From positions 1 through 43,877 of IMG/VR virus record IMGVR_UViG_3300009168_000061: a DNA stretch of 43,877 nt, one strand, 5' to 3'. Of the stretch, positions 5,525 through 36,887 are shown piece by piece. The notes under the pieces are model-generated. The model made no database searches, was not told the DNA's origin, and saw nothing but the letters and a program-made list of their open reading frames with translations. This stretch comes from a virus. Made by a program: the position numbers and the translations under genes. Within the stretch, counting starts at the first letter, position 1, and each line of letters begins with the position of its first letter.

Positions 5525-7897
5525 TTAAAGCCACCGTCTCCTTTGCTGTTTTTGATGAGCTATTGCGATTGCAGCTATCCCGGAGCTATCCATACGGATA
5601 CCGTAGTTCTCAATACTCTCAACTGCATGGATCATATCATCCATTTTCTTTAATAGCTTCTTTTCGGCCATCGTGAGCGATCCCTTTTTGCTCGATCCCA
5701 TGAAAGAAGTATCCAGAGTCGGGAATGTTCCTGCATACATCTCATTAAGGAAAGGCCAATATCTTTTAGTTGTTTGCTGATCCATTACAAACTCTCCTTT
5801 GTGGACCGTACCCGCAGGCTCATATTTACCTCCATCTCCAGTATAACCACCTTCAGCATAACTATTGTTTGTTGATTTGAACGCTCCGACAATCGTAGCA
5901 ATACCCGCAACCAGAGCAGCCACAGCAGCAGCAACCCTCAGAGCAATCGTATAGGGATCACCCTCAGCAGCAGCCTTAACAACAGCTCCGATGGCCTCAG
6001 CGGTTGCCTTAGCCTGTTCAGAAGCGGTTATTAATGCATTCAGCTCTATTTGTCTCTGGGCAGCTTTCTCGCGTTCTCTTTGAGCGGTATCTAACCTTTC
6101 CTGTTCTGACTCCAGAAGTTCAAGATTTCCCCTCTTCGCTAATTCAACTGCATAAGCAATCCTGTTTTGTCGATAAGCAATCTCATTATCTAACCGGGTA
6201 ATCTGAGCTTTCATCATGGAGTCTGCAATCGCTATAACAGCCTGTTTGATTCCATTGTAAGCAGCCTCTTCAGCTTTGGCCCTCTCAGCTAACATCTTTT
6301 TATGAGCATCTTCACGCTCCTTTTCCGCTTTAGCCATTTCCGCCTCCCTTCTCTTCTGGAAAGCAATATCGAACTGAAGATCATCCTCAGCATTTCTCCG
6401 TTGAGTTGCTAACTCCTCTTGTCTTGCCTTATCCTCATCTTTCTTTTTGTCATCAATCGCTTTTCCATAGGCTTTTCTGCCCTGCTCAAAATTCTTTACG
6501 GTATTGGTGAGGAGGTATTCATCGAACTTCTTATTTAGAGCAGCGATCCTATCCCGTTCTTTCTGTTCTCTTTTCTCCCGATCCCTTGCATCCTTTTCGG
6601 CCTGCTTCCGTTGCTCATCAGTCATTGACGCCTGATCCTTATGTTTCTTTTGCCATTCCTCATAAGCCTTACGATCTTCAGGAGTCATAAAGAAATGCAG
6701 CCCATCAGGACCGATACCTGACTGGATCTCCTTAGTGAGCATCAGATCTTTGAACTTTGCATCATAAAGATCTTCGAGAGCTTTCGTTTGCTGTTTTAAG
6801 GATTCATTGCTCTGGTTAACCCCTTCTATATAAGTGAAATTGTTTGCAGTAGTCCGGTGATCTAACTCCAATTTGTTTCTGGTTATCTTTTCCAGAAGTT
6901 GATCAAGTTCAGCCTCTCTCGCTTTGATTAAGGCTCTGCTTTTGATGGATGTTGTAACCGCGTCAATACTAACTTTCAACTCTCCATTGAGTACTTTTTC
7001 CCGGTCTAAGTTTGAGAAGAAATCCGGGTACTTTTCCTGCAACTCATCCAACGCCTCACCGCGTTCTTTATAGGATAGAGATAGATCATTAGCAGTAGCA
7101 GCCAGAATATTAAGGTTGTTAGATTCAGTTGATATAGCTTTAGACGTTTCATTAAGTGAATCTTGGTATGCTTTTGTTTCATCGTTAAGTTTTTCGGTAG
7201 CATCAGCAGCTCCAAACAATTCTTTACCGAATAGTGTGAAGAGCGTGATTGCAATGGTGATGATATTTGTAATGGTAAAAAACTGAGTTCCGAGTGCCGT
7301 GAGAGCTTTCATTGCAGATCCTTCCGACTTTACAAGTCCTTCAAATTCAGAGCTTAGTATCGGAATATTGTTGCTGAGAGCCAGAATTCCCGTATTAAAA
7401 GAATACATGAACGCTGGACCTTCTCTAAGTACTTGACTTAGAGCGTATGATGAATTCTGAAGTTTCTTATTTGAGGCATCTAACCCCTTTTGGGAATTGG
7501 CGATCTGGTTATTGGCAGCGGCCATAGCTTTACCTACCTGTTCCCATGCTGTAATACTTTTCCCCGCTGCCGCTGCCTGTTCATTGAGCAGTTTAGTTTC
7601 ATTCCTTGCAGTTTCCGCGAAGATTTTCTTTGCTTTAATCAGCTCTATATATTTTTTTGTCTCCGCGTCAATCTTAGTATTCTGACTATCAATGGCCGTC
7701 TGGAGTCTTTGCCTTTCAGCAACTTCGGAGTTTGTAGTATTTTTGAATTGCTCCTCTAAATCCTTCAGCTTGGTAATCTCCTGATCTACAACCTTCATCT
7801 GAGTTGTGATCTCCTGAGTAGCTTTCTCTAACTGAGTTGTATTTGCCTTGTAATTAAACTCATGGACTACTGAAATTATCCGCGTCTCATCTGCCAT
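5525..7897 (-). CDS. Tail tape measure protein
   Basis: A 790-residue protein with long coiled-coil helices (about residues 15-165 and 440-640). A hydrophobic patch lies near residue 205-235. The Gly-rich C-terminal segment (AEGGYTGDGGKYEPAGTVHK) is characteristic of phage tape measures. Tape measures set tail length at roughly 1.5 Å per residue, so a tail near 120 nm is expected. It is the first gene of the left structural block, with a -7 box about 20 bases upstream, so it probably heads a late operon. The family assignment is firm. Confidence 0.9.
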   Translation of the reverse strand: MADETRIISVVHEFNYKANTTQLEKATQEITTQMKVVDQEITKLKDLEEQFKNTTNSEVAERQRLQTAIDSQNTKIDAETKKYIELIKAKKIFAETARNETKLLNEQAAAAGKSITAWEQVGKAMAAANNQIANSQKGLDASNKKLQNSSYALSQVLREGPAFMYSFNTGILALSNNIPILSSEFEGLVKSEGSAMKALTALGTQFFTITNIITIAITLFTLFGKELFGAADATEKLNDETKAYQDSLNETSKAISTESNNLNILAATANDLSLSYKERGEALDELQEKYPDFFSNLDREKVLNGELKVSIDAVTTSIKSRALIKAREAELDQLLEKITRNKLELDHRTTANNFTYIEGVNQSNESLKQQTKALEDLYDAKFKDLMLTKEIQSGIGPDGLHFFMTPEDRKAYEEWQKKHKDQASMTDEQRKQAEKDARDREKREQKERDRIAALNKKFDEYLLTNTVKNFEQGRKAYGKAIDDKKKDEDKARQEELATQRRNAEDDLQFDIAFQKRREAEMAKAEKEREDAHKKMLAERAKAEEAAYNGIKQAVIAIADSMMKAQITRLDNEIAYRQNRIAYAVELAKRGNLELLESEQERLDTAQREREKAAQRQIELNALITASEQAKATAEAIGAVVKAAAEGDPYTIALRVAAAVAALVAGIATIVGAFKSTNNSYAEGGYTGDGGKYEPAGTVHKGEFVMDQQTTKRYWPFLNEMYAGTFPTLDTSFMGSSKKGSLTMAEKKLLKKMDDMIHAVESIENYGIRMDSSGIAAIAIAHQKQQRRRWL

Positions 7898-7918
7898 CTC
7901 ACATCCAGTTAATTAGTA

Positions 7919-7926
7919 CAAATATA
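7919..7926 (-). promoter_or_regulatory. -7 box of a probable late promoter for the tape-measure operon
   Basis: Read on the minus strand this is TATATTTG, a perfect match to the Bacteroidetes -7 consensus TAnnTTTG, placed so that transcription would begin 15-18 bases before the tape-measure ATG. No TTTG sits at the normal 18-20 base distance; the nearest is 26 bases upstream (7953-7956). Such a displaced -33 suggests that an activator is needed, for example the divergently encoded winged-helix protein. That link is inference. Confidence 0.5.
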
Positions 7927-8004
7927 AGTATTAATCGTTTGCTATTGGTTCTCAAAGGATTGTATATATTCAATATAAATTTTCAGGAAAAATAGGAAAA
8001 GGAT

Positions 8005-8034
8005 TTTGTAGTTTAATCTTGGATTGTATCTTTG
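8005..8034 (+). promoter_or_regulatory. Bacteroidetes-type promoter of the leader RNA/winged-helix gene
   Basis: TTTG at 8005-8008 and TATCTTTG at 8027-8034 are separated by 18 bases, matching the -33/-7 consensus. Transcription is expected to begin near 8038-8041, directly before the folded leader and about 140 bases before the winged-helix coding frame. Confidence 0.75.
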
Positions 8035-8039
8035 GAGAG

Positions 8040-8136
8040 CAAATTCTTTTTGTGTGTGGTAGCGCTAAAAGGGTTTGATGGGTTTCCTGAGAATCCACCC
8101 AACCCCGAAAGTCTACCACCTTACGGGGTTTTTTAT
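8040..8136 (+). ncRNA. Candidate structured leader RNA or small RNA with pseudoknot/terminator
   Basis: The expected transcript can form four helices. GTGGTAG (8056-8062) pairs with CTACCAC (8113-8119), GGGTT (8071-8075) with AACCC (8101-8105), GGG (8080-8082) with CCC (8098-8100), and CCCCG (8103-8107) with CGGGG (8124-8128) followed by six T. The outermost helix and the terminator helix interleave as in an H-type pseudoknot. The inner GGGTT helix and the terminator compete for the same C residues. That is the usual layout of an attenuator or riboswitch, or of a free small RNA that ends at 8135. The fold is by eye and the ligand or target is unknown. Confidence 0.55.
8103..8136 (+). terminator. 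Rho-independent terminator or attenuator inside the leader
   Basis: CCCCG at 8103-8107 pairs with CGGGG at 8124-8128 and is followed by TTTTTTATTTT. It lies between the promoter at 8005-8034 and the coding frame at 8182, so read-through must be controlled for the gene to be expressed from this promoter. Confidence 0.6.
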
Positions 8137-8181
8137 TTTATCCTACCTTAAGAAGCATTTGCATTTAATTATTGCAATGCT

Positions 8182-8943
8182 TTGACTTGTCTATATAACA
8201 TAAAACTTCTCGCTTTCATACTTGCTCACAAAGCAAGGCGCAGAAGTTCATGTATATACGAACATGAAAAAATATATATATTATCTCAGGAAATTGGCAT
8301 CTCCAGAGGAGCGTATAAAAAGTATCTTGAATCATGCAGGAGGTTAGGACTCATAAATGAATGCAATGCATTTATTTCTATATCCAAAGCTCTGATGGTT
8401 CTATTCCCGGACAAATTCATCCCAAGAGACAATAAGCCTGATAAGACTCCACTTTATCGGGCCTCGTTTTTTAAGAATTTTCCGAAAAAAGCTGATTTCA
8501 AGTACTACAAGGATCTTGTTGAGTTTTCCATATTTCATGAAAATGGAATGGGCCAACAACATTACAATGAAAAAGATGAAGTAATTGACCGATTAAAGTC
8601 GAACCGTACTAAGGGAAATGATCTCGATGCTCTCAAAACCTTGAAAAAGAAACATGGTTTAGATAGTATTGAGGGTTTAAAAAGTATCGACACAAAGACG
8701 GAAATTCATTCAGGTAAGTTTCATTTAAGCAATCTGTTAGGCTGTTCTCCGACTACCGGGGCGAACAGGCTTAGGCGATGGCATAATGAGGGGAAAATCG
8801 AAAGAGAAATAAAAAAGGTTTTCTTTATAGGAGATCGTTCTTTCAGGAAATTCGATGCCCTGAAAGCTAAAGGTTATAAAATAGTGATTCCTATTGCAAC
8901 AGGTTTTATGGCTGTAATGGGTAGTATCATTACTTTCCTTTAG
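8182..8943 (+). CDS. Two-winged-helix DNA-binding protein (regulator or replication initiator-like)
   Basis: A 253-residue protein with an N-terminal winged helix-turn-helix (about residues 30-65, with SQEIGISRGAYKKYLESC). A second helix-turn-helix lies near residues 180-210 (LSNLLGCSPTTGANRLRRWH), and a hydrophobic tail follows (about 236-253). There is no in-frame ATG near the start; TTG at 8182 is the best start because the winged helix begins soon after it and a stop lies at 8149. An out-of-frame ATG-CTT-TGA sits just upstream at 8177. It is isolated from other operons, with its own promoter, folded leader and terminator. Candidate roles are late-gene activator or lysogeny regulator. Confidence 0.65.
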   Translation: MTCLYNIKLLAFILAHKARRRSSCIYEHEKIYILSQEIGISRGAYKKYLESCRRLGLINECNAFISISKALMVLFPDKFIPRDNKPDKTPLYRASFFKNFPKKADFKYYKDLVEFSIFHENGMGQQHYNEKDEVIDRLKSNRTKGNDLDALKTLKKKHGLDSIEGLKSIDTKTEIHSGKFHLSNLLGCSPTTGANRLRRWHNEGKIEREIKKVFFIGDRSFRKFDALKAKGYKIVIPIATGFMAVMGSIITFL

Positions 8944-8960
8944 TTGTATCTTAAAAGATC

Positions 8961-9000
8961 TGGTTCAACCCATTAACTATGGGATTGAATCATTTTTTTT
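8961..9000 (+). terminator. Terminator of the winged-helix gene
   Basis: A 13-base stem (8961-8973 with 8979-8992, one bulge and some G-U pairs) is followed directly by eight T. It lies 18 bases after the stop codon. Confidence 0.7.
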
Positions 9001-9165
9001 GTCCGAACATATTATTACATATTGTTTATTTTAATTCCAAAAAAAGTCTCTAATGAGGGAAATGTTTTCTGCTTGGATTGTTCACCCCTTAACTGGACGG
9101 TTGTGTGTTTCTATTATAGGTTCTTTTTTTGACAATACTTTATACAATACATGGGCTAATGAATA

Positions 9166-9347
9166 GTATCTCCGAATGGAGATACGGCTACACCCGGATA
9201 ACATGATCTATGGGTAAGGCTTCTGCCTTAGCAGAATGCCGTTACCGGATAGATCATAAATACACACAACACTAATCGTTGGGAGGATTCCTGAATAGGA
9301 ATCCGCACATAAGCAATTAACCCTCCCTCCAGAGTTAGAAAACACTC
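9166..9347 (+). ncRNA. Cluster of near-perfect hairpins: candidate structured RNA or DNA element
   Basis: The 515-base gap 8944-9458 has no convincing gene but holds four hairpins. H1 (9166-9185) has 8 perfect pairs closed by the loop GAAT. H2 (9203-9257) is a 55-base hairpin of about 23 pairs around the loop CTTA, with an alternative inner hairpin TAAGGC/GCCTTA. H3 (9285-9304) again has 8 perfect pairs with a GAAT loop. H4 (9331-9347) has AGAGT/ACTCT. A further GGGAGG/CCTCCC pairing spans H3. No consensus promoter was found for it on either strand, so RNA versus DNA function (origin, attachment or packaging site) is open. Strand is assigned by the flanking genes. Confidence 0.5.
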
Positions 9348-9424
9348 TCTGTTCCATTGCTTTATACATATTAAGTATTATGTAATATGAGTGGGCCGCG
9401 CAAAAAAAATTCCACTGCTTTTGC

Positions 9425-9455
9425 TTTGTCAATATTGTATATTTCGGTAAATTTG
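9425..9455 (+). promoter_or_regulatory. Consensus promoter of the RNase H-fold gene
   Basis: TTTG at 9425-9428 and TAAATTTG at 9448-9455 have a 19-base spacer, a full match to the Bacteroidetes consensus. The expected transcription start falls on or within three bases of the ATG at 9459, so the message may be leaderless. Confidence 0.75.
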
Positions 9456-9458
9456 CGT

Positions 9459-10028
9459 ATGGAAGCAGCGATCCAAAATAATATACCATATTCAGGACTT
9501 GTTCCTAATAAGTTGAACTTCAATACAAAGAAGCGTTCAAAAAGCAAGTTTGTACCTGATGTGAATATCTATATCACCTCCTTTGGTACATACGGAGCTT
9601 TTAATGGTAAAGGTTGTTATGCAGTAATAATGACACATAAAGGCCATGAGAAAACGATTTCCGAAACTTATAGATACACCTCTAAGACTAGAATGGAGCT
9701 ATTTGCGATTGTGGCCGCGCTAAAATCGCTCAAAATGCCTTGCCTTAATATCTCCATTCATTTACAAAATGAGGGGATTTATGAGGCTATTAAAGGTCGT
9801 AAGCCGTGGAGATGGGTAAGGCATTGTAAGAAAGGATTCGTAAATGATGACCTATGGTGGAGCTTCATTGAACTTGTTAAAGGCCACAAATACCGCCTGC
9901 ATCTGCTTTCTCAGAATCCAGATATAATTTACTCCCCCCGGTTGGAAAAGCTCAGTAAAGAGGCTTATTTCAATCGCGTTCCTAAAATAGATTCTCATAT
10001 CGAGGAACAGAATCAGGTTTTCGCATAA
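9459..10028 (+). CDS. RNase HI-fold protein with degenerate active site
   Basis: Counting from ATG 9459 (189 aa), residues 34-165 align by eye with RNase HI. There is a first strand VNIYITSFG, then GKGCYAVIM, then the helix KTRMELFAIVAALKSL with the catalytic Glu kept (E80), then the strand ISIHLQNEG. The first catalytic Asp (TDG in RNase HI) is replaced (ITSFG), the Asp of the fourth strand is Gln103, and the last Asp region reads RLEKLSKEA. Cleavage is therefore unlikely; RNA-DNA or RNA binding is the better guess. An upstream ATG at 9387 is possible but lies before the promoter. The gene stands alone between the hairpin cluster and a bidirectional terminator. Confidence 0.7.
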   Translation: MEAAIQNNIPYSGLVPNKLNFNTKKRSKSKFVPDVNIYITSFGTYGAFNGKGCYAVIMTHKGHEKTISETYRYTSKTRMELFAIVAALKSLKMPCLNISIHLQNEGIYEAIKGRKPWRWVRHCKKGFVNDDLWWSFIELVKGHKYRLHLLSQNPDIIYSPRLEKLSKEAYFNRVPKIDSHIEEQNQVFA

Positions 10029-10031
10029 ATG

Positions 10032-10063
10032 AAAAAGGATGAGTTTTTACCTCATCCTTTTTT
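10032..10063. terminator. Bidirectional terminator after the RNase H-fold gene
   Basis: AAAAAGGATGAG (10032-10043) is the perfect complement of the sequence at 10051-10062, with T runs on both sides, so it can stop transcription from either direction. Confidence 0.8.
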
Positions 10064-10087
10064 GTACCGTTACTTATAGGCTTCTGG

Positions 10088-10172
10088 CATTCCGGTTCGC
10101 CGCGATAACTACACCTACTTTAGAACCTCTCTTACCCGGATATCAAAGGTTATCATCATCGGACCGGGAATG
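10088..10172. other. Intergenic inverted-repeat element, possibly structured RNA
   Basis: CATTCCGGT near 10089 pairs with ACCGGGAATG near 10163 (one bulge), and inside it GATAAC pairs with GTTATC. The result is a nested stem of about 85 bases between the two terminators of this convergent gap. No promoter was found for it. It shares ACCCGGATA and GGCTTCTG with the hairpin cluster at 9190-9250, which may be chance. Confidence 0.3.
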
Positions 10173-10203
10173 AATATGATCCAAATATACAAATTACTTT
10201 AAT

Positions 10204-10233
10204 AAAAAAATGCATCCGGTAGAAACCGGACGC
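10204..10233 (-). terminator. Terminator of the large minus-strand packaging operon
   Basis: GCATCCGGT (10212-10220) and ACCGGACGC (10225-10233) form a stem with an AGAA loop on the plus strand. On the minus strand it is followed by seven T (10204-10210). It lies 41 bases after the last gene of the operon. Confidence 0.75.
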
Positions 10234-10273
10234 TGACCTCTTTTTTTGAAAAACTATATATAAACCTTTTGTC

Positions 10274-10537
10274 TTATTTCCTATCGTTGATTTCCTGCAA
10301 TTGTGCAACCGTGAATTTATGAAACATTTCGATCATTATCTCCAGTTTTATACGATCATCGAGCGTTAATACCTCTATATCGTTTTCCAGAATATTATAA
10401 TCAATGGCTTCAAAGACTTCGGATCTGGAGATGGTTTTCTTTGCATAATGAAAGCTCAGGAGTTTAAGAACATCCTCTCCATCGAAATCTATCATATCAA
10501 CAGCGGCTTCCACATTAACGTGAATATAATCTCTCAT
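10274..10537 (-). CDS. Small acidic protein of unknown function (87 aa)
   Basis: This is the last gene of the minus operon, coupled to its upstream neighbour by an ATGA overlap. It is helical and acidic with no recognised motif. It lies just before the operon terminator. Confidence 0.55.
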   Translation of the reverse strand: MRDYIHVNVEAAVDMIDFDGEDVLKLLSFHYAKKTISRSEVFEAIDYNILENDIEVLTLDDRIKLEIMIEMFHKFTVAQLQEINDRK

Positions 10538-10794
10538 GATCCTTCAGTTGGTTTGTTATTTTCCTTAAGCCATTCCTTGTACTTCTTATAAACGGATACC
10601 CGGTAATAGTATTCATAGTATGAGCAATTCAGGAAATGTTCAGTTTCTACGAAATTTCCATTGCAGATCTTCATTGCTGTATCTACAAAATTTCCATACC
10701 AATCATTTATTTTTTGTGCAACCGGAGAGGCGTCAACCCTTCGAGTATCTGCCTCCGGTTCATTATATATTCCATGTTGATCAAAAGTTCGCAC
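10534..10794 (-). CDS. Small Tyr-rich protein of unknown function (86 aa)
   Basis: The frame overlaps the end of the preceding 190-residue gene by 88 bases, which is long, so the true start may lie further in. A cluster YYEYYYRVSVYKKYKEW near residues 59-75 is unusual. It overlaps the next gene by 4 bases. The family is not recognised. Confidence 0.5.
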   Translation of the reverse strand: MRTFDQHGIYNEPEADTRRVDASPVAQKINDWYGNFVDTAMKICNGNFVETEHFLNCSYYEYYYRVSVYKKYKEWLKENNKPTEGS

Positions 10795-11279
10795 GACTCC
10801 ATGTAACTTGGAGTTGACTGTACGCCCAATGTCAAAAAAAAAGAATATAAGTCTGGATCTCCCTGAATTTTACGTTCAGTATCCCCTACCGCCAATGTAA
10901 CTTTTTGCTGAGTCCAGAGATCCTGACAATTATCCGGGTTCTCGCCATCAATAAAACAGTAGATAGCACCCATGCGGACCGCGCACAGCTCATCAACCGG
11001 GTATTGCAGCCTATATAGCAGATTATCCATTAAAGTACCTATATCGGTTCGCAGGGAGTTTCTATCACGTTCATTATTGCAGATCTCTTTTATAGCCTCC
11101 GCAATATGCCTGATAAACTCTTTCGTAGCTCCAGACTGACTGAATATATCTTGCGCTCCCGCTGCAACATACCGGGAGAGATGATAACCGTTAACAGAAT
11201 CAACCGGGAGGTAAACATGCTTCTGATGGATCTCAGAATAATAAGCGGAGACGTATTCAGCATTATCTTTAAACATCAT
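10707..11279 (-). CDS. Protein of unknown function (190 aa)
   Basis: A soluble mixed alpha/beta protein. The start ATG at 11279 overlaps the stop of the previous gene by about 11 bases. No catalytic motif was recognised. Codon use and tight packing support a real gene. It belongs to the TerL-downstream cluster, where most phages would carry portal and capsid genes, but it is far too small for a portal. Confidence 0.6.
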   Translation of the reverse strand: MMFKDNAEYVSAYYSEIHQKHVYLPVDSVNGYHLSRYVAAGAQDIFSQSGATKEFIRHIAEAIKEICNNERDRNSLRTDIGTLMDNLLYRLQYPVDELCAVRMGAIYCFIDGENPDNCQDLWTQQKVTLAVGDTERKIQGDPDLYSFFLTLGVQSTPSYMESCELLINMEYIMNRRQILEGLTPLRLHKK

Positions 11280-12035: not shown

Positions 12036-12626
12036 TTACTTATCCCCCTGTTTTCCGTTATCCTTAACGATCTCTTTAATCAGGAGCAGCTTCAGGTAGT
12101 GTTCCGGAAACTCCCTTTTGATCAGATCCTCCCTTTCTTTGGACATAATGATAAAATTATTAATGCTATTATCGTAAACCAGAACCTCACCGCATTGAGA
12201 GCAAAGAGCGACATCATCAAGATCATCCATCTTATGTCTCCACCGCTCCGTATCTATGAACATAACGTGATCACATTTCGGGCAGGATGAAATAGAAGTA
12301 GTAGATAAAATACCCTCCTCCTCATCATCCTCCGCTATCTGCTCTTTGTGAGTCATTATATAAAACATCGTAATCTCCCTCCTCTCCAGATTTAAAGGAC
12401 TAACAGGCATACCCTCAAGAGCTGCAACTTTAATCGCTACCAGATAACGGAAGCAAGTCAACATAACATCATCCATTTTCGGATTCTTTTTCAGGAGCAA
12501 TTCATTCAGGAAATCGTTTCCCTCTTCAGTTGTAAAACCTGTTCCTTTGAATTTCCTACTGAAAAGTTTTGCTAAACCGGATGTGATTCGACTAACTTTT
12601 TCTGAAAATAATTCTATTGATTCCAT
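12036..12626 (-). CDS. Zinc-ribbon protein of unknown function (196 aa)
   Basis: It carries two CxxC pairs about 27 residues apart (SCPKCDHV and LCSQCGEV, about residues 113-145), forming a zinc ribbon after a helical N-terminal half. It starts at the TAATG shared with the ParB-like gene, so both are co-translated. Possible roles are nucleic-acid or protein binding in regulation. Exact family unknown. Confidence 0.65.
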   Translation of the reverse strand: MESIELFSEKVSRITSGLAKLFSRKFKGTGFTTEEGNDFLNELLLKKNPKMDDVMLTCFRYLVAIKVAALEGMPVSPLNLERREITMFYIMTHKEQIAEDDEEEGILSTTSISSCPKCDHVMFIDTERWRHKMDDLDDVALCSQCGEVLVYDNSINNFIIMSKEREDLIKREFPEHYLKLLLIKEIVKDNGKQGDK

Positions 12627-13360
12627 TAGTAAAATCTTACTTTATCTCTTGTTTGGAAATTATATATATCCTCGATTATGAGCAGATAGTTCTTAATGGT
12701 AAAACAGTTTGTCAATGCTGATGGCTGCTTTGAAAGCTGATGGACAAAGAAAGAGTGATTATAATCCTTATGGTTGAAAAGATGTCTCATTGTATTTATA
12801 AAAGTCCTCCTCTGGTACTGCTTATAATATTGACCTACCTCTACGATCTGGTCCGCTAACTTAAAGGCATTAGCAGAATCAACAATCTTCAGATCCCCGC
12901 GTTTCAGATCCCTTTCTGCATACTTCTTATTCTCTCCAACCAATAGGGCTAATGTCTCCCTGACGGCAAAACCATATTTCTTTAAGAAATCACGGAACAA
13001 TATATAATCCTCTATTCCCTGATCAGCATAAGAGTTTACGAAATCAAAGAGATTCCAGTGTTTCATGTTCTCATTCATCTGGTGAACCTCATTGATACCA
13101 TATCCCTCGACTGTGATAAAGTAAACAGGTAAGTTCATCTCTTTCCAGATCGCCAAACGATGCTGACCATCTATAACCTGAAAGAATTCATTAACCAGAA
13201 TAGGACTCATCAGGGGTTTAATCAACATTGATACCCTGATCCGATTCAGATTGTGAGGACACATTTTCCTATTGCCTAAAACATCCTGAAAGAGATCGTA
13301 GTTCTTTGTCGACTGGATCTCTCCAATTGTTTTAATTCCGGGTGAAGCGATTGTCTGCAT
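12626..13360 (-). CDS. ParB/Srx-like domain protein
   Basis: Residues about 30-85 contain the ParB/sulfiredoxin signature, with conserved VIDGQHRLAIWKEMNLPVYF. The remaining 160 residues are helical. Such ParB-like proteins in phages act as nucleases or DNA-binding factors rather than classical partition proteins. It is located downstream of TerL and far from the ParA gene at 36249, so a partition role is not implied by context. The leader contains a doubled CTTAAAATCTTAAA motif. Confidence 0.75.
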   Translation of the reverse strand: MQTIASPGIKTIGEIQSTKNYDLFQDVLGNRKMCPHNLNRIRVSMLIKPLMSPILVNEFFQVIDGQHRLAIWKEMNLPVYFITVEGYGINEVHQMNENMKHWNLFDFVNSYADQGIEDYILFRDFLKKYGFAVRETLALLVGENKKYAERDLKRGDLKIVDSANAFKLADQIVEVGQYYKQYQRRTFINTMRHLFNHKDYNHSFFVHQLSKQPSALTNCFTIKNYLLIIEDIYNFQTRDKVRFY

Positions 13361-14266: not shown

Positions 14267-15691
14267 CTATGATTTGGTGATCCCGGAGGATTGCCGTTTA
14301 CCTATCCTGAAATATACATTCTGAGCGAAATCATGGAAATACTTTTGAAAGAAATATCTCATACCATCGAAATAATCCATCTTAAAGCCCTCCCGGTCCT
14401 TGCGTAACTGATGAGCTTTTCCCCCTGTTTCATCGACTTCAGCAATCTCACAGTCTCGAATTAAATTCTTACAATTCTTTGAGATCCTAAGATTGGGATA
14501 TGAATTGAACATCGCATTTATCAATTGCCTGCTATTCTCATGAAGGAGGTTTGATGAGTTAGGCTGCATCTGAGCTTTAGATAAACCAAGTGCAACCTTA
14601 ATCAGTGTATATGAGGTATCATGTTTACTCTCATACGCCACATCTCCCTTATTGCCTGATGAATCCCCGGTAACAAAGAATATTGAATATGGATACTTGG
14701 TTTTAATGCGGATACAAAGCTCCTTTAACTGCATATCCCCACCGAATTCATCAATGCAATGTATAAAGCTGTTGGTGACTCCTTTTGATGGTGAGAATTG
14801 CCATAGCGTACAAGTAACCGGATCACGGTTAAAATCGAAAGCTAAATATATAGGGAATGTTGGCAGGAATGGAACATTGTCTGAAACGTGTTTCATGTAA
14901 TCGAAAGCATACATCCACGGAGATTTATTTTCAGATACGCCCCACTCTCCAAAAGCTATTGAATCCAGTAAACGCTCATTACCCGCGCAACCCATCGAGA
15001 GCTTTGCATAATAGGCTTTCTGGTCAATGAAAAAGTTGTGATAGAAGTTTGCCTTAATAGCAGTAACCTTCAGCGGAGGTACATTATCAGGATCAAAGAA
15101 CATTTTCTTTACCCAATGATCTTCTCTGACCTGTTCAGTATTGAAGCTGCCAAAGAATTGAGTTTTTGCTTTTGAGGTCCGCAACCGGGATAAGAGCGTA
15201 GTGAAATCTTCCAGATCAAACTGATCCAACTCCTCAGCCCATATATGTGTAGGATCTTTAATAGACTTAATCTTTGACGCATCATCGCAACCAAACGGGA
15301 TGAACTGATTTCCGTTGACACAGATTATCGACATTGTGGAATTTGGCTTCCGGGAGTATCGAAAGAACCGCTGCCATCCATTTTCCTCGATAACGTCAAT
15401 CAATGTATCAAAGCAGGAATCCCGGACCTTATTCCGGATCTTACGGCCAAAGAGACATTTGAAATATGGCAGTGTAAGGCATAACCGGATTAAAAGAGTT
15501 GCCAAAAATACGCTCTTACCTGAGCCATAGCTACCGTAAAGGAGGAGGATATCACACAGATCATTCCAAACATCAATATAAATATCGTTTACGATGATAC
15601 CGTTGTTTTCCCTGATAAGCTCTTTGTAAGCATCATCCGCATCGGCATATTCTGAGGCAGGGATCGGAATAAGATTTTCTATTAAGCTCAT
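14267..15691 (-). CDS. terL: Terminase large subunit
   Basis: A 474-residue packaging motor and nuclease. The Walker A motif is at residues 52-60 (YGSYGSGKS) and Walker B with the catalytic Glu at 148-157 (THIWAEELDQ). RNase H-like nuclease carboxylates lie at 281-291 (YLAFDFNRDP), 340-346 (VTGDSSG) and near the C-terminus (DYFDGMRYF). It translocates DNA into proheads and cuts it, working with the small subunit encoded 4 kb upstream in the same operon. Unusually, about nine genes separate the two subunits and no portal follows. Confidence 0.95.
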   Translation of the reverse strand: MSLIENLIPIPASEYADADDAYKELIRENNGIIVNDIYIDVWNDLCDILLLYGSYGSGKSVFLATLLIRLCLTLPYFKCLFGRKIRNKVRDSCFDTLIDVIEENGWQRFFRYSRKPNSTMSIICVNGNQFIPFGCDDASKIKSIKDPTHIWAEELDQFDLEDFTTLLSRLRTSKAKTQFFGSFNTEQVREDHWVKKMFFDPDNVPPLKVTAIKANFYHNFFIDQKAYYAKLSMGCAGNERLLDSIAFGEWGVSENKSPWMYAFDYMKHVSDNVPFLPTFPIYLAFDFNRDPVTCTLWQFSPSKGVTNSFIHCIDEFGGDMQLKELCIRIKTKYPYSIFFVTGDSSGNKGDVAYESKHDTSYTLIKVALGLSKAQMQPNSSNLLHENSRQLINAMFNSYPNLRISKNCKNLIRDCEIAEVDETGGKAHQLRKDREGFKMDYFDGMRYFFQKYFHDFAQNVYFRIGKRQSSGITKS

Positions 15692-20413: not shown

Positions 20414-20902
20414 ATGGCAGCTTTTATCATTCTTTCTGTTCTTTTCCTTGTTAGTGTTTCAGCTTTCTATTCTTACGATTCTTTCGTAGTTCGTTATGAT
20501 TCTTACCCTACTGAGGTAATGTTATCGGAGACGTTTACAAACGTTCATCAGGACATTAAATCACTGGATCTTGGTGATATTATCTATTCTGCTTTTACTG
20601 CCGTTAATCGTGCTTTCTACGCTCAGTTTGTAGTATTCAAATCATGGGTAGCTTTCAACTTATCTAAGGAGATAGTTACAAACGAAAAACTAGTGGACCT
20701 CTCCCCTCTTAGTGATGTTATGATCCTTAACCAGACAACTAAAAAGAAAAAGAATAAAAGCTCCATTGCTTCCCACATAGCAAATCAAATGAAGGATCTG
20801 AAAGAATCAGTCAATCCGGTTTGTTCACCTTGTAGGGGGTTCTTTTCTCAGAACGTTGTTATGGACAACAATGGACAAATCATGTTTTATTTTGTAGCCT
20901 AA
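20414..20902 (+). CDS. Membrane-anchored protein of unknown function (162 aa)
   Basis: This is the first gene of the early operon. Residues 4-21 (FIILSVLFLVSVSAFYSY) form an N-terminal membrane anchor or signal segment, followed by an exported or cytoplasmic domain with a Lys-rich patch (KKKKNK, about residues 115-120). An early-expressed membrane protein could act in superinfection exclusion, but nothing in the sequence proves this. Confidence 0.65.
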   Translation: MAAFIILSVLFLVSVSAFYSYDSFVVRYDSYPTEVMLSETFTNVHQDIKSLDLGDIIYSAFTAVNRAFYAQFVVFKSWVAFNLSKEIVTNEKLVDLSPLSDVMILNQTTKKKKNKSSIASHIANQMKDLKESVNPVCSPCRGFFSQNVVMDNNGQIMFYFVA

Positions 20903-25645: not shown

Positions 25646-25960
25646 ATGTCAAGTAAAAACGAGATACTGGAAAGTATTGAAATCTCCGTATCTGATCTGT
25701 TGGAGATAACAGAAAGGCAGGCAATAAAACTATTTAACTCTGGCAAGGTAGTTTATGTTTGCACGGATGATAATAAACCTACTCAGGGGTTTAACTGTTT
25801 CTGGATGTGTAAAACGATTCAGGACGCCTCTTTAAATTATCATTGCTTAGATATTTTTAATATCACAATTGAGGAGCAAATTAGATTCATCCGGACTCAT
25901 CAAGCCGAACCAATCTATTTTTACACATTGAATTCTACTCAGCTCTGGATAGTTGATTAA
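25646..25960 (+). CDS. Protein of unknown function (104 aa)
   Basis: ATG 25646 is preferred over 25604 because it follows an AT-rich leader (CTCTTAAA). The segment SDLLEITERQAIKLFNSGKV resembles a small helix-turn-helix. No family is recognised. It ends 8 bases before a terminator. Confidence 0.55.
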   Translation: MSSKNEILESIEISVSDLLEITERQAIKLFNSGKVVYVCTDDNKPTQGFNCFWMCKTIQDASLNYHCLDIFNITIEEQIRFIRTHQAEPIYFYTLNSTQLWIVD

Positions 25961-25967
25961 ACAAAAT

Positions 25968-25996
25968 AAAGGTTAACCGTCTGGTTAGCCTTTTGG
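25968..25996 (+). terminator. Terminator at the end of the early operon
   Basis: AAAGGTTAACC pairs with GGTTAGCCTTT around the loop GTCT. Confidence 0.7.
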
Positions 25997-26003
25997 CGTT
26001 GGT

Positions 26004-26056
26004 CCTAACTTAAAAACTTGTTAGCTCATTTGAGTTAATGAGTTTTTAAGTTTAGG
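26004..26056. repeat. 53-base near-perfect palindrome
   Basis: CCTAACTTAAAAACT (26004-26018) matches AGTTTTTAAGTTTAGG (26041-26056) with one extra base. Inside it TTAGCTCA pairs with TGAGTTAA around two T. It could extrude as a cruciform or fold as a long RNA hairpin. The arms carry the CTTAAAAACTT motif found before many genes here. Confidence 0.65.
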
Positions 26057-26100
26057 CGTTAATGTGCTTTTCCGGATTGTTTGCGGATCTTTTAACATTG

Positions 26101-26115
26101 CCCTACATTGTAGGG
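26101..26115. promoter_or_regulatory. Perfect 15-base palindrome, operator-like
   Basis: CCCTACATTGTAGGG has 7-base arms around one base and lies 15 bases before the gene at 26130. Its length and symmetry suit a dimeric repressor. Nothing else identifies it. Confidence 0.4.
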
Positions 26116-26129
26116 TAAAAGTTGTGTGA

Positions 26130-26327
26130 ATGCGTCAAAATGAGATCTTAAAAGCTGTTAGTATGTTAGCTGCCATTACTTGCGGTTGCCTGTTTTGTTT
26201 CGGTTTATGTAAGCTCCTTTATTGTCCGGACTTGTCCTTTAACTATCGGTTTTATTATATCCTTTCATGCTTCTTTAATTTGGCAGGATTCGGATTTAAT
26301 ATCCGGAATTTCTTTTACATAAAGTAA
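26130..26327 (+). CDS. Two-span membrane protein (65 aa)
   Basis: Residues 9-29 (Cys-rich CGCLFCFGLC inside) and 42-58 form two membrane segments with a short loop. It stands alone between the palindrome region and the repeat cluster. Function unknown. Confidence 0.55.
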   Translation: MRQNEILKAVSMLAAITCGCLFCFGLCKLLYCPDLSFNYRFYYILSCFFNLAGFGFNIRNFFYIK

Positions 26328-26429: not shown

Positions 26430-26561
26430 ATGAGTTTGCATGAGGACCATCACGATTTTAGGCCCAATCGGAAAAGAACCAATCGGAAAAGAACCAGAAA
26501 ACGGGTAATCGGAAAAGAACCAATCGGAAAAGAAATAAAAAAAATATTTTATGAACACTGA
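26430..26561 (+). CDS. Doubtful Arg/Lys-rich peptide spanning direct repeats (43 aa)
   Basis: An open frame with an AT-rich leader that ends 11 bases inside the next gene. It is made largely by the 13-base repeats: the first two copies read as NRKR, the last two as IGKE because the frame shifts between them. That argues the DNA repeat is what is conserved, so the peptide may be accidental. Confidence 0.25.
   Translation: MSLHEDHHDFRPNRKRTNRKRTRKRVIGKEPIGKEIKKIFYEH
26466..26534. repeat. Four copies of AATCGGAAAAGAA (iteron- or arm-site-like)
   Basis: Identical 13-base copies start at 26466, 26481, 26507 and 26522, that is two pairs each with 15-base spacing and 26 bases between the inner copies. 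The 222-base gap 26328-26550 holds little else. They lie 490 bases before the integrase and just before the 26551 gene. They could be integrase arm-type sites, replication iterons or an operator array. Confidence 0.7.
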
Positions 26562-27021: not shown

Positions 27022-28164
27022 ATGATAGTAAAAGTTACATTGCGGGAAAAGGAGATATCAGGTAATAGGAAAAGTTTGTACTTGGATTTCTATCCTGCAA
27101 TCACGAATCATAAAACCGGAGAACCAACCAGACGGGAGTTCTTAGGGATCTATATTTACGAGAAAACCAAAAGCCCGATTGACAAACAGCAAAATAAATC
27201 CAATATGGAGCTTGCTGAACAAATCAGGCTAAAGCGGTTTAATGAGGTCAATAAGCCTGAGATCTATACGGGAGCAGAAAAAGAGATCCTTCGCATAAAG
27301 GAGCAGGGGGAAAAGAGCTTTCTTTCTTACTTCAGGGAGTTAGCGGAAAAGAAAAAAGAATCGAACCTGAAGAGTTGGAAAGCTACTCTGATTTATCTTG
27401 AAAGGTATGCAGGAAACTCAATCCGTTTTGCAGATCTGGATAAGCATTTCTGTAATGGTTTCCGTGATTTTCTGTTAATCACAAAAAGCCTGAGAAGCGA
27501 GAGATCCGCGCTATCTATTAATAGTGCGTCTGCATATTTCCATAAGTTCAAAGCTGCCTTAAATCAGGCTTACGATGATGGTTATATCAATTCGGATTTA
27601 GGTAAACAGGTAAAAGGGATCGAAGGAGAGGAGACGCGGAGAGAGTTTCTTACAATGGATGAGATCGGATCTCTGGTTAGAACAGAATGTGAAAACCCGG
27701 TCCTGAAGGATGCTGCTTTATTTTCAATCCTCTCCGGGATGAGGTTTTCTGATATTGAGAATCTTAAATGGGAGAACGTTGAAGTTCTGGAGCAGGAGAA
27801 CTATCAATTGAAGTTCACTCAGGAGAAAACCAAAGGAATTGAGACGCTTCCAATCTCTAAGCAGGCTTTTGAATTGATGGGAGAGGGAAAAGAACCACAA
27901 AAACAGGTTTTCGATGGTTTACACTACTCACACCATCAAAATAGAATCCTGAGCAGATGGTTAGGCAAAGCAGGCATTTTAAAGACAATTACCTTTCACT
28001 GCTTCCGACATACTTACGCAACCTTGCAACTCTCTCACGGAACGGATATATTTACTCTCTCTAAAATGTTAGGCCATCGGAAAGTGCAAACCACTACGAT
28101 TTATGCGAAAGTTCTGGATGAGAGCAAACGTGAAGCTGCAAATAGAATACAATTATGTTTTTAA
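27022..28164 (+). CDS. int: Tyrosine recombinase/integrase
   Basis: A 380-residue Bacteroidetes-type tyrosine recombinase with an arm-binding N-terminus (1-90), a SAM-like core-binding domain (95-195) and a catalytic domain. Catalytic residues visible: Arg241 (SGMRFSDIE), His326 and Arg329 (HCFRHTYA), His352 (LGHRKV) and Tyr361 (TTTIYAKV). It should integrate the genome at a host site or resolve multimers. No attachment core could be identified without host sequence. Confidence 0.93.
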   Translation: MIVKVTLREKEISGNRKSLYLDFYPAITNHKTGEPTRREFLGIYIYEKTKSPIDKQQNKSNMELAEQIRLKRFNEVNKPEIYTGAEKEILRIKEQGEKSFLSYFRELAEKKKESNLKSWKATLIYLERYAGNSIRFADLDKHFCNGFRDFLLITKSLRSERSALSINSASAYFHKFKAALNQAYDDGYINSDLGKQVKGIEGEETRREFLTMDEIGSLVRTECENPVLKDAALFSILSGMRFSDIENLKWENVEVLEQENYQLKFTQEKTKGIETLPISKQAFELMGEGKEPQKQVFDGLHYSHHQNRILSRWLGKAGILKTITFHCFRHTYATLQLSHGTDIFTLSKMLGHRKVQTTTIYAKVLDESKREAANRIQLCF

Positions 28165-29071: not shown

Positions 29072-29409
29072 AGATCGTTTGGATCTATTTTCATCAGCTT
29101 ATCGTAGATCTCCTTTGAGAATTTCCTTAGTTGAATATAACGTGGGCTAAAGTTGTATTTATATAGCAGGCTATTTAACCAGAGCAGGCCATCGAGCAGA
29201 TAATCAATCTTTCTTTGTTTGGATTTTGATAGTTTGCTCTGAGTCGCAAAAAGCAGGATCATATTTTCAATATAATGTATTGGTTCGTATTCCTTTTCTA
29301 ACTTACCATCAGACACAATGAAATATTTACCTCTTAATGGATCATCAATAAGCTGTTCTGATATCCCCCTCGCTAAAAATTCCAACTCTGCAACCATTAT
29401 CGTTTCCAT
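29068..29409 (-). CDS. Protein of unknown function in the leftward switch operon (113 aa)
   Basis: ATG 29409 lies just after the stop of the upstream gene (29414). Helical with basic C-terminal parts. With the next entry it is one of only two clear leftward genes in the 17-kb rightward early region, which marks this pair as a separate control unit, possibly lysogeny or immunity. No family is recognised. Confidence 0.55.
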   Translation of the reverse strand: METIMVAELEFLARGISEQLIDDPLRGKYFIVSDGKLEKEYEPIHYIENMILLFATQSKLSKSKQRKIDYLLDGLLWLNSLLYKYNFSPRYIQLRKFSKEIYDKLMKIDPNDL

Positions 29410-29413
29410 CTTA

Positions 29414-29608
29414 TTATGTCTTAGTACCATTCCACATATCATATGTTATATGATTTGCGATCCTCATCAGTTTATTACCCATTATTCCTGCTCCCTGACC
29501 ATGAGTTAATCCAGTGAACTTTTTTGTTTCAGGATCAAAGGTTGGTTTGATCCCCTTCTTTTTCATGTAAACAATCGTTTCCCGGATCTCATTAGCTGAT
29601 GGCTTCAT
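29414..29608 (-). CDS. Small basic protein of the leftward switch operon (64 aa)
   Basis: The pattern MKPSANEIRETIVYMKKKGI, then HGQGAGIMGNKLMR, suggests a small DNA-binding or RNA-binding protein. It faces the rightward HTH gene across a 161-base control region with repeated sites. Function inferred from context only. Confidence 0.5.
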   Translation of the reverse strand: MKPSANEIRETIVYMKKKGIKPTFDPETKKFTGLTHGQGAGIMGNKLMRIANHITYDMWNGTKT

Positions 29609-29664
29609 AAACTGATTTGTTTATATAAAATTACGCAATAATGCAGGAGGATTTATCTAATAAG

Positions 29665-29708
29665 TTTGGTAAATTATCAGTATTTGGTAACTTTATAAAG
29701 AATTTACC
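29665..29708. promoter_or_regulatory. Three operator-like repeats in the divergent switch
   Basis: TTTGGTAAATTAT (29665-29677) and TTTGGTAACTTTAT (29683-29696) are direct copies 18 bases apart. A third, inverted copy is at 29695-29708, centred on the palindrome CTTTATAAAG. This is the arrangement of phage repressor operators. The likely binder is the HTH protein at 29770 or its divergent partner. Confidence 0.55.
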
Positions 29709-29769
29709 TCTATAAATTACTGTTCTACAATGATCCTTTGCATACAAATACCACATTACAAATTTTAAT

Positions 29770-29970
29770 ATGGAAAAAGAATTAGCATTCCTGAGAAAGA
29801 ATAAAAAATACATAAAGCATACTGCAATTGCGAAGGAGTTAGGAATTGATATTGCTACATTTAGCAGGATCATCAATAAGACAAAAGATACCAGAGGCTA
29901 TGAAACGGATTTACCGGAAAAGTATAATGTTAAACTGAAGCAGATTATAAATACTATATTTAAGTGCTAG
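29770..29970 (+). CDS. Small helix-turn-helix regulator, Cro/Xre-like (66 aa)
   Basis: Residues 16-40 (KHTAIAKELGIDIATFSRIIN) form a clear helix-turn-helix. The protein is about Cro-sized. It is divergent from two leftward genes with operator-like repeats between, so it is the best candidate for the lysis-lysogeny switch. The promoter was not matched to consensus. Confidence 0.7.
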   Translation: MEKELAFLRKNKKYIKHTAIAKELGIDIATFSRIINKTKDTRGYETDLPEKYNVKLKQIINTIFKC

Positions 29971-30002
29971 ATTATAGGTTGATGTATGTGGCAAAAGTGA
30001 AA

Positions 30003-30025
30003 GGGGGATTCGTCCTCCTTTTTTT
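30003..30025 (+). terminator. Terminator of the HTH gene
   Basis: GGGGGA and TCCTCC around TTCG are followed by seven T. Confidence 0.75.
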
Positions 30026-30072
30026 ATAGTATAAAATTGTAGTATTTTTATATTATAAATTTAACAGTGTTT

Positions 30073-36248: not shown

Positions 36249-36887
36249 ATGATCATAAGTATTAGCTCACTCAAAGGTGGCGTTGGTAAGTCAACGATAG
36301 CCCAAAATTTAGCAGTTTGTTTTGCCAGAAATGGTTACAAAGTTTGCATTATAGATTCTGATGCAAACCAATCATCTCTCAAATGGAGTTCACTTAGAAC
36401 TAACGAGGAGTTTAGTATTCCTGCATATGGTTTGCCTGATGGAAACGAATTAGGTAAGAACGCGAGTCACCTTGATAAGCTGTATGACGTAGTGATCATT
36501 GATGGTACTCCTAACCTTTCAAAGCTCACCTCCAAGATCATTCTAACCTCTAATTTTGTGTTTATCCCGGTCCTGCCATCTGGTATGGATGTTTGGGCTA
36601 CCCGGAAATTCTTAGATCATTACCAGAACATTATTGAGGAGAGCGAAACAAATATTCCCGCTTACTTTATAATGAATAAATTCAGGCCAAATACAAGCCT
36701 TTCAATGGAGGTTAAAGAATGTTTAGCTGAGTTTGAGATCCCGGTAATGGAAACTTGCCTGAAGGATCGCGTAGCTTATGGTGAAGCGGTAATAAAAGGA
36801 TCTGGAGTTTATGAACACAGAAACAAAGCAGCCAAAGAGGAGATAACGAATCTCTTTAATGAGGTAATGGAGATAATCACAAAATAA
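36249..36887 (+). CDS. parA: ParA-family partition ATPase
   Basis: A 212-residue small (type Ib) ParA. The deviant Walker A motif is at residues 9-16 (KGGVGKST, with signature Lys9), switch I is Asp40 (DSDANQSS) and Walker B is VVIIDGTP. It would move plasmid-state copies before division with the RHH protein encoded next. This points to a phage-plasmid or an extrachromosomal prophage phase. No N-terminal helix-turn-helix is present. Confidence 0.9.
   Translation: MIISISSLKGGVGKSTIAQNLAVCFARNGYKVCIIDSDANQSSLKWSSLRTNEEFSIPAYGLPDGNELGKNASHLDKLYDVVIIDGTPNLSKLTSKIILTSNFVFIPVLPSGMDVWATRKFLDHYQNIIEESETNIPAYFIMNKFRPNTSLSMEVKECLAEFEIPVMETCLKDRVAYGEAVIKGSGVYEHRNKAAKEEITNLFNEVMEIITK

What the first reader, a model, noticed from the sequence alone, without database searches (positions are those of the whole stretch)
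8000..10240. Self-contained accessory island with its own promoters, terminators and two structured elements
Two rightward genes interrupt the leftward packaging-to-tail order, and each is flanked by a control element on both sides. Composition is three folded elements (8040-8135, 9166-9347, 10088-10172) and two putative nucleic-acid-binding proteins. Such cassettes (morons) often carry defence, exclusion or regulatory functions. The pairing of a dead RNase H fold with structured RNA does not match a system I know.
Basis: inference. Interest (0 to 1): 0.7.

Follow-up and report, generated by a model that had tools for sequence, protein, structure and literature searches.

The report
Phage moron: dead RNase H, folded RNA
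A temperate phage of Bacteroidota carries, at a spot where its relatives carry other extra genes or none, a small self-transcribed cassette of a DNA-binding-like protein, an RNase H that has lost its cutting residues, and an unusually folded non-coding stretch; the cassette type is known, but no relative of this set of parts was found.

Summary
The island is real and is best read as a moron. The window is a temperate Bacteroidota-type phage (integrase, RecT, ParA). Between 7898 and 10273, two rightward genes sit inside the leftward late region. Exact Bacteroidota promoters (TTTG-N18/19-TAnnTTTG) start at 8005 and 9425; only two others exist in the window. Four of the five most over-stable folds in a + strand scan lie in the island.

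Synteny is the main evidence. In 12 relatives the order TerL, g190, g86, tape measure is kept. The island site is short in seven (overlap to about 590 b) and holds 3.8-5.2 kb of unrelated cargo in five. The two genes rang in none of 50 related records. So the site is variable, but co-inheritance of this set is untestable: no other copy was found.

Gene 2 is an RNase HI fold with D10 replaced by F, D70 by Q, D134 by E. Gene 1 is weakly HTH-like with a predicted C-terminal membrane segment. Element 2 is strongly folded (z -5.4), on either strand. Element 1 is a terminator leader with a competing fold. Element 3 is no more stable than shuffles. The mechanism is inferred.

The parts
8005..8034 (+). 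promoter P1, Bacteroidota type (TTTG-N18-TATCTTTG)
   Evidence: exact motif match, one of 4 in the window; consensus from PMC7366714
8036..8135 (+). element 1: leader ending in an intrinsic terminator (8101-8130 plus T-run) with a competing antiterminator-like fold (GTGGTAG/CTACCAC)
   Evidence: terminator fold -32.0, forced alternative -29.1 kcal/mol; 2 of 300 upstream shuffles reach the stability of the pre-terminator fold, but 47 of 300 pair as much of the terminator arm and loop
8101..8280 (+). terminator followed by two further hairpins (about 8152-8183 and 8205-8246) overlapping the start of gene 1
   Evidence: z -5.9, 0 of 200 shuffles
8182..8943 (+). gene 1, 253 aa, TTG start; weak HTH-like stretches at residues 34-58 and 180-216; predicted C-terminal membrane segment (residues about 234-253); net charge +20
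   Evidence: sub-threshold Pfam matches, sub-convincing AbiEi match E 0.005, hydropathy 2.07 over 19 residues
8957..8999 (+). terminator after gene 1 (hairpin GGTTCAACCCAT...ATGGGATTGAATC plus T-run)
   Evidence: sequence, fold of 8821-9010 z -4.2
9156..9361 (.). element 2: about 200-nt multi-hairpin element; helices 9203-9211/9249-9257, 9166-9173/9178-9185, 9285-9292/9297-9304, 9281-9286/9322-9327; possible pseudoknot 9311-9317/9356-9362
   Evidence: z -5.4 on +, -5.0 on -, helix list, no Rfam match
9425..9455 (+). promoter P2 (TTTG-N19-TAAATTTG), 3 nt before the gene 2 ATG, predicting a leaderless mRNA
   Evidence: sequence
9459..10028 (+). gene 2, 189 aa, RNase HI fold with catalytic residues lost (D10 to F, D70 to Q, D134 to E; E48 kept)
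   Evidence: Pfam PF00075 E 2.5e-8, NCBIfam ribonuclease HI model E 1.2e-16 but below its cut-off, PDB phmmer E 2e-12, alignment
10032..10062 (.). hairpin with T-runs in both directions: terminator for gene 2 and for any leftward transcript from about 10180
   Evidence: perfect 12-bp inverted repeat
10212..10233 (-). terminator closing the incoming leftward operon at the island's edge
7919..7926 (-). -7 element TATATTTG 29 nt before the tape-measure start: likely late promoter restarting the tail operon
   Evidence: a TAnnTTTG lies within 140 nt before the tape-measure start in 9 of 13 phages compared; no -33 TTTG at standard spacing here

Best explanation
A moron cassette of a temperate Bacteroidota phage. 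Shown: it sits at a late-operon boundary just before the tape-measure gene, a place where related phages carry other cargo or nothing, and it has host-type promoter motifs and terminators of its own. Inferred: host polymerase with the primary Bacteroidota sigma factor transcribes it in the lysogen, independently of late genes. Gene 1 is a positively charged, HTH-like protein held at the membrane by a C-terminal segment, made when transcription reads through a conditional terminator in its leader. Gene 2 is made from a leaderless mRNA and binds RNA, or RNA-DNA hybrids, without cutting. Its most likely partner is the folded 200-nt element just upstream, as an autoregulatory leader or a small RNA. 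The likely net effect is a lysogen trait such as regulation or exclusion of other phages. Confidence by step: moron at a variable site about 0.85; own promoters about 0.85; gene 2 non-catalytic about 0.9; gene 2 binds element 2 about 0.2; superinfection or defence role about 0.3.
For: Synteny and variable site. Temperate phage: integrase, RecT, YqaJ, ParA, TerL and tape measure. Promoters: with the consensus in PMC7366714. Non-coding fraction 44% in the island against 14% elsewhere. Four of the five most over-stable + strand windows lie in the island. Lost catalytic residues. Membrane segment. Competing leader folds.
Against: No second copy of the cassette was found, so co-inheritance of the two genes and element 2 is unproven. 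The island's G+C and GC3 match the phage, so nothing marks it as recently acquired. Element 2 is nearly as stable on either strand, so it may be DNA-level inverted repeats. The leader's alternative fold sequesters no more of the terminator arm than 47 of 300 shuffles do. Structure models made without an alignment were poor (pLDDT 40 and 36).
Confidence: 0.6

Rival explanations
1. Two unrelated single-gene insertions at one permissive site. Gene 1 and gene 2 arrived separately, each with its own promoter and terminator, and element 2 is only the 5' region of gene 2 or leftover of an insertion; nothing works together.
For: Separate promoter and terminator for each gene; relatives show stacked, varying cargo at the same site.
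Against: None direct; nothing observed links or separates the two genes.
Confidence: 0.3
2. Element 2 acts as DNA: perfect inverted repeats (two with a GAAT centre) are operators or a recombination or replication site bound by gene 1 or another phage protein, and the folding is incidental.
For: Near-equal stability on both strands; 8-9 bp perfect inverted repeats; no terminator seen after element 2 on + before 10032.
Against: The repeat half-sites differ from each other, so they are not copies of one operator; the helices form one nested multi-branch fold, which operators do not need.
Confidence: 0.25
3. A toxin-antitoxin or defence system in which a folded RNA controls a protein (type III-like or retron-like).
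For: Folded non-coding element beside a nucleic-acid-binding fold; weak AbiEi match for gene 1.
Against: No PADLOC match for gene 2 and none at convincing level for gene 1; no reverse transcriptase among the island genes or the other window proteins scanned; no tandem RNA repeats as in ToxIN in the island.
Confidence: 0.08

Closest known systems
Phage morons (lysogenic-conversion cassettes)
   Same: Gene(s) between conserved structural genes, opposite strand, own promoter and terminator, absent from relatives at the same site
   Different: Unusually much non-coding, structured sequence (44% of the island); the two proteins have no close relative in the collections searched; expression in a lysogen not shown
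RNase HI (PF00075; phage RnhA such as those of Moorella phage MTATph1 and Escherichia phage PhiR41_1)
   Same: Fold, E48, and the conserved stretch around N-D-D-L-W; a basic N-terminal extension as in PhiR41_1
   Different: D10, D70 and D134 replaced, so the two-metal site should not form
Transcription attenuators and riboswitch-type leaders
   Same: Terminator ahead of a gene with a competing upstream fold
   Different: No Rfam match; competing fold not proven and the sequestered part is not beyond shuffles

Membership tests
Phage moron | Extra gene(s) between genes that are adjacent in related phages | tested here: met
   g86 and tape-measure homologues are separated by under 100 b or overlap in L008, L009, L012 and L013; the two island genes rang in none of 50 related records
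Phage moron | Own promoter and terminator | tested here: met
   Sequence level only:
Phage moron | Expressed in the prophage while lytic genes are silent | not testable with these tools
   Needs RNA-seq of a lysogen
RNase HI | RNase H fold | tested here: met
   PF00075 34.7 bits over cut-off 25.8; phmmer to PDB RNase HI E 2e-12; weak Foldseek agreement from a poor model
RNase HI | Catalytic D10-E48-D70-D134 | tested here: not met
   F, E, Q, E in gene 2; intact in five phage RNases H aligned
HTH DNA-binding protein | Significant match to an HTH family | tested here: inconclusive
   HTH_Crp_2 E 0.038, HTH_24 E 0.13, both below cut-off; no solved relative
Known non-coding RNA family | Rfam gathering score | tested here: not met
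   No match
Retron | Reverse transcriptase next to the ncRNA | tested here: not met
   The two island genes match only RNase_H and weak HTH models
Type III toxin-antitoxin | Tandem-repeat antitoxin RNA ahead of a ToxN-like toxin | tested here: not met
   No tandem repeat family in the island; no toxin match

The most novel reading that the evidence does not exclude
A ribonucleoprotein moron: a catalytically dead RNase HI specifically binds the 200-nt folded RNA encoded just upstream, and together with a membrane-anchored DNA-binding protein gives the lysogen a regulatory or anti-phage function, a pairing for which I know no described system.
Probability: 0.12. Interest if true: 0.75.

Novelty: new member of a known kind. 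Interest (0 to 1): 0.4.

Why it matters
It marks a cargo site just before the tape-measure gene in a family of Bacteroidota-type phages, at a likely late-promoter boundary, which makes it a place to look for host-changing genes. If the dead RNase H binds the adjacent RNA, it would be an unusual reuse of RNase HI as an RNA binder in place of a nuclease.

Tried and rejected
Element 3 as a structured RNA: rejected on fold statistics on both strands. Known ncRNA families: none. tRNA or tmRNA: none. Defence system by PADLOC: nothing convincing. Relatives of the two proteins: single-protein scans of viral contigs and genome contigs (gene 2 only), tblastn in phages and plasmids, and a degenerate RMELFA motif scan gave only generic RNase HI or nothing. 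DNA similarity in phages and plasmids: none of note. Structure prediction of both proteins from single sequences gave poor models; only the RNase H one was taken further and only as weak support. Foreign origin by composition: not supported. A full sweep of folding on both strands timed out; the + strand sweep with 16 shuffles per window covered 467 of 486 windows. Searching host genomes by taxonomy was not possible for a virus record. The 10-nt match between the element 1 loop and gene 1 (8083-8092 / 8284-8293) is expected by chance at about that rate and was dropped. An ORF on the minus strand over element 2 (9208-9489) was judged unlikely to be coding from its residue make-up; not tested further.

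Full report
What was checked. The window is a 43.9-kb IMG/VR virus record. It encodes a large terminase (14267-15691), a tape-measure-like protein (5525-7897), a DnaB-type helicase, an integrase, RecT, a YqaJ nuclease, ParA and a small terminase subunit, so it is a temperate tailed phage. Its promoters have the form known for Bacteroidota: -33 TTTG and -7 TAnnTTTG (PMC7366714). The full motif occurs four times in the window against 1.43 expected. Two matches are in the island, and the other two stand ahead of + strand genes at 20414 and 24133. The host phylum is inferred from the promoter type, not shown.

The island. From 7898 to 10273 two + strand genes lie inside the leftward TerL-to-tail block. 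P1 (8005-8034) leads into a leader that ends in a terminator at 8101-8130; gene 1 follows (8182-8943) and a second terminator lies at about 8957-8990. A 515-base non-coding stretch comes next. It contains element 2 and P2 (9425-9455), whose -7 box ends 3 bases before the ATG of gene 2 (9459), so gene 2 should be leaderless. In B. thetaiotaomicron only about 3.7% of 5' UTRs are under 10 nt (PMC7366714). A hairpin at 10032-10062 can stop transcription in both directions, and a minus-strand terminator at 10233-10212 closes the incoming late operon. Non-coding sequence makes up 44% of the island and 14% of the rest.

Folding. A sweep of the + strand (467 windows of 180 nt, 16 shuffles each) put four of the five most over-stable windows in this 2.4-kb island: starts 9091, 8821, 8101 and 9181. 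Element 2 scores z -5.4 on + and -5.0 on -, so strand and molecule are open. Element 1 alone scores z -1.8; the overlapping stretch 8101-8280 scores -5.9. Before the 3' arm of the terminator is made, the leader's best fold pairs GTGGTAG with CTACCAC in the terminator loop (-27.5 kcal/mol); the full leader switches to the terminator (-32.0, against -29.1 for the forced alternative). Only 2 of 300 upstream shuffles reach that early stability, but 47 of 300 tie up as much of the terminator arm and loop, so an attenuator is plausible and not shown. Element 3 is at shuffle level on both strands.

The proteins. Gene 2 matches PF00075 at 34.7 bits (cut-off 25.8) and solved RNases HI at E 2e-12. Aligned with five phage RNases H whose four catalytic residues are intact, it has F for D10, E for E48, Q for D70 and E for D134. 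With D10 and D70 gone it should not cut; that it still binds nucleic acid is inference. Gene 1 has two sub-threshold HTH-like stretches, net charge +20, and a 19-residue stretch of mean hydropathy 2.07 close to its C-terminus. A membrane-anchored DNA-binding protein is a reasonable guess, not a result.

Synteny. TerL relatives were gathered with a single-protein scan and then an alignment scan. In twelve of them the order TerL, g190 (10707-11279), g86 (10534-10794), tape measure is kept (in L011 g86 itself was not detected and the gap is counted from g190). The stretch before the tape measure is under 100 b or an overlap in L008, L009, L012 and L013; 285-586 b in L004, L011 and L019; and 3.8-5.2 kb in L005, L006, L007, L014 and L015, where it holds proteins read here (from sequence, not by family search) as methyltransferase-, glycosyltransferase- and HNH-endonuclease-like. 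A TAnnTTTG lies within 140 b ahead of the tape-measure start in 9 of 13 phages, against about 1.3 expected, so the site is probably a transcription boundary where cargo should do little harm. PF00075 is absent from 50 related records, with positive controls ringing. Gene 1 rang in none of the 50 either, where the tool notes that an empty answer has no positive control.

Reading. The island is a moron by the features that can be tested here. The most likely mechanism is lysogenic expression from host-type promoters, a read-through-controlled gene 1, and a non-cutting gene 2 that binds RNA or hybrids, perhaps element 2; all of these steps beyond the sequence features are inference.

Limits. Absence from these collections is not absence in nature: records of the window's own or very near genomes may be left out by the tools, metagenome contigs were not open, single-protein scans find close relatives only, and many of the 50 records are fragments.

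Noticed in passing
25930-26200: A second, even more over-stable folded stretch (z -6.3, 0 of 200 shuffles) in a 590-base non-coding gap; no convincing Rfam match.
   Followed up: partly
26467-26536: Four near-identical copies of AATCGGAAAAGAA just ahead of a + strand gene (26551), iteron-like; possible origin or operator (read from sequence).
   Followed up: no
L005:12119-16070, L006:12277-16980, L015:10543-14502: Relatives carry methyltransferase-, glycosyltransferase- and HNH-endonuclease-like cargo at the island's site, plus one opposite-strand gene directly before the tape measure.
   Followed up: partly
27022-28164 and 36249-36887: The phage has both an integrase and a ParA-type ATPase, with a ParB-like protein at 12626-13360, a notable mix of integration and partition genes.
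   Followed up: no
29072-30066: Largest stretch left uncovered by the genes taken as real here (995 bases), with two minus-strand ORFs of 124 and 81 aa.
   Followed up: no
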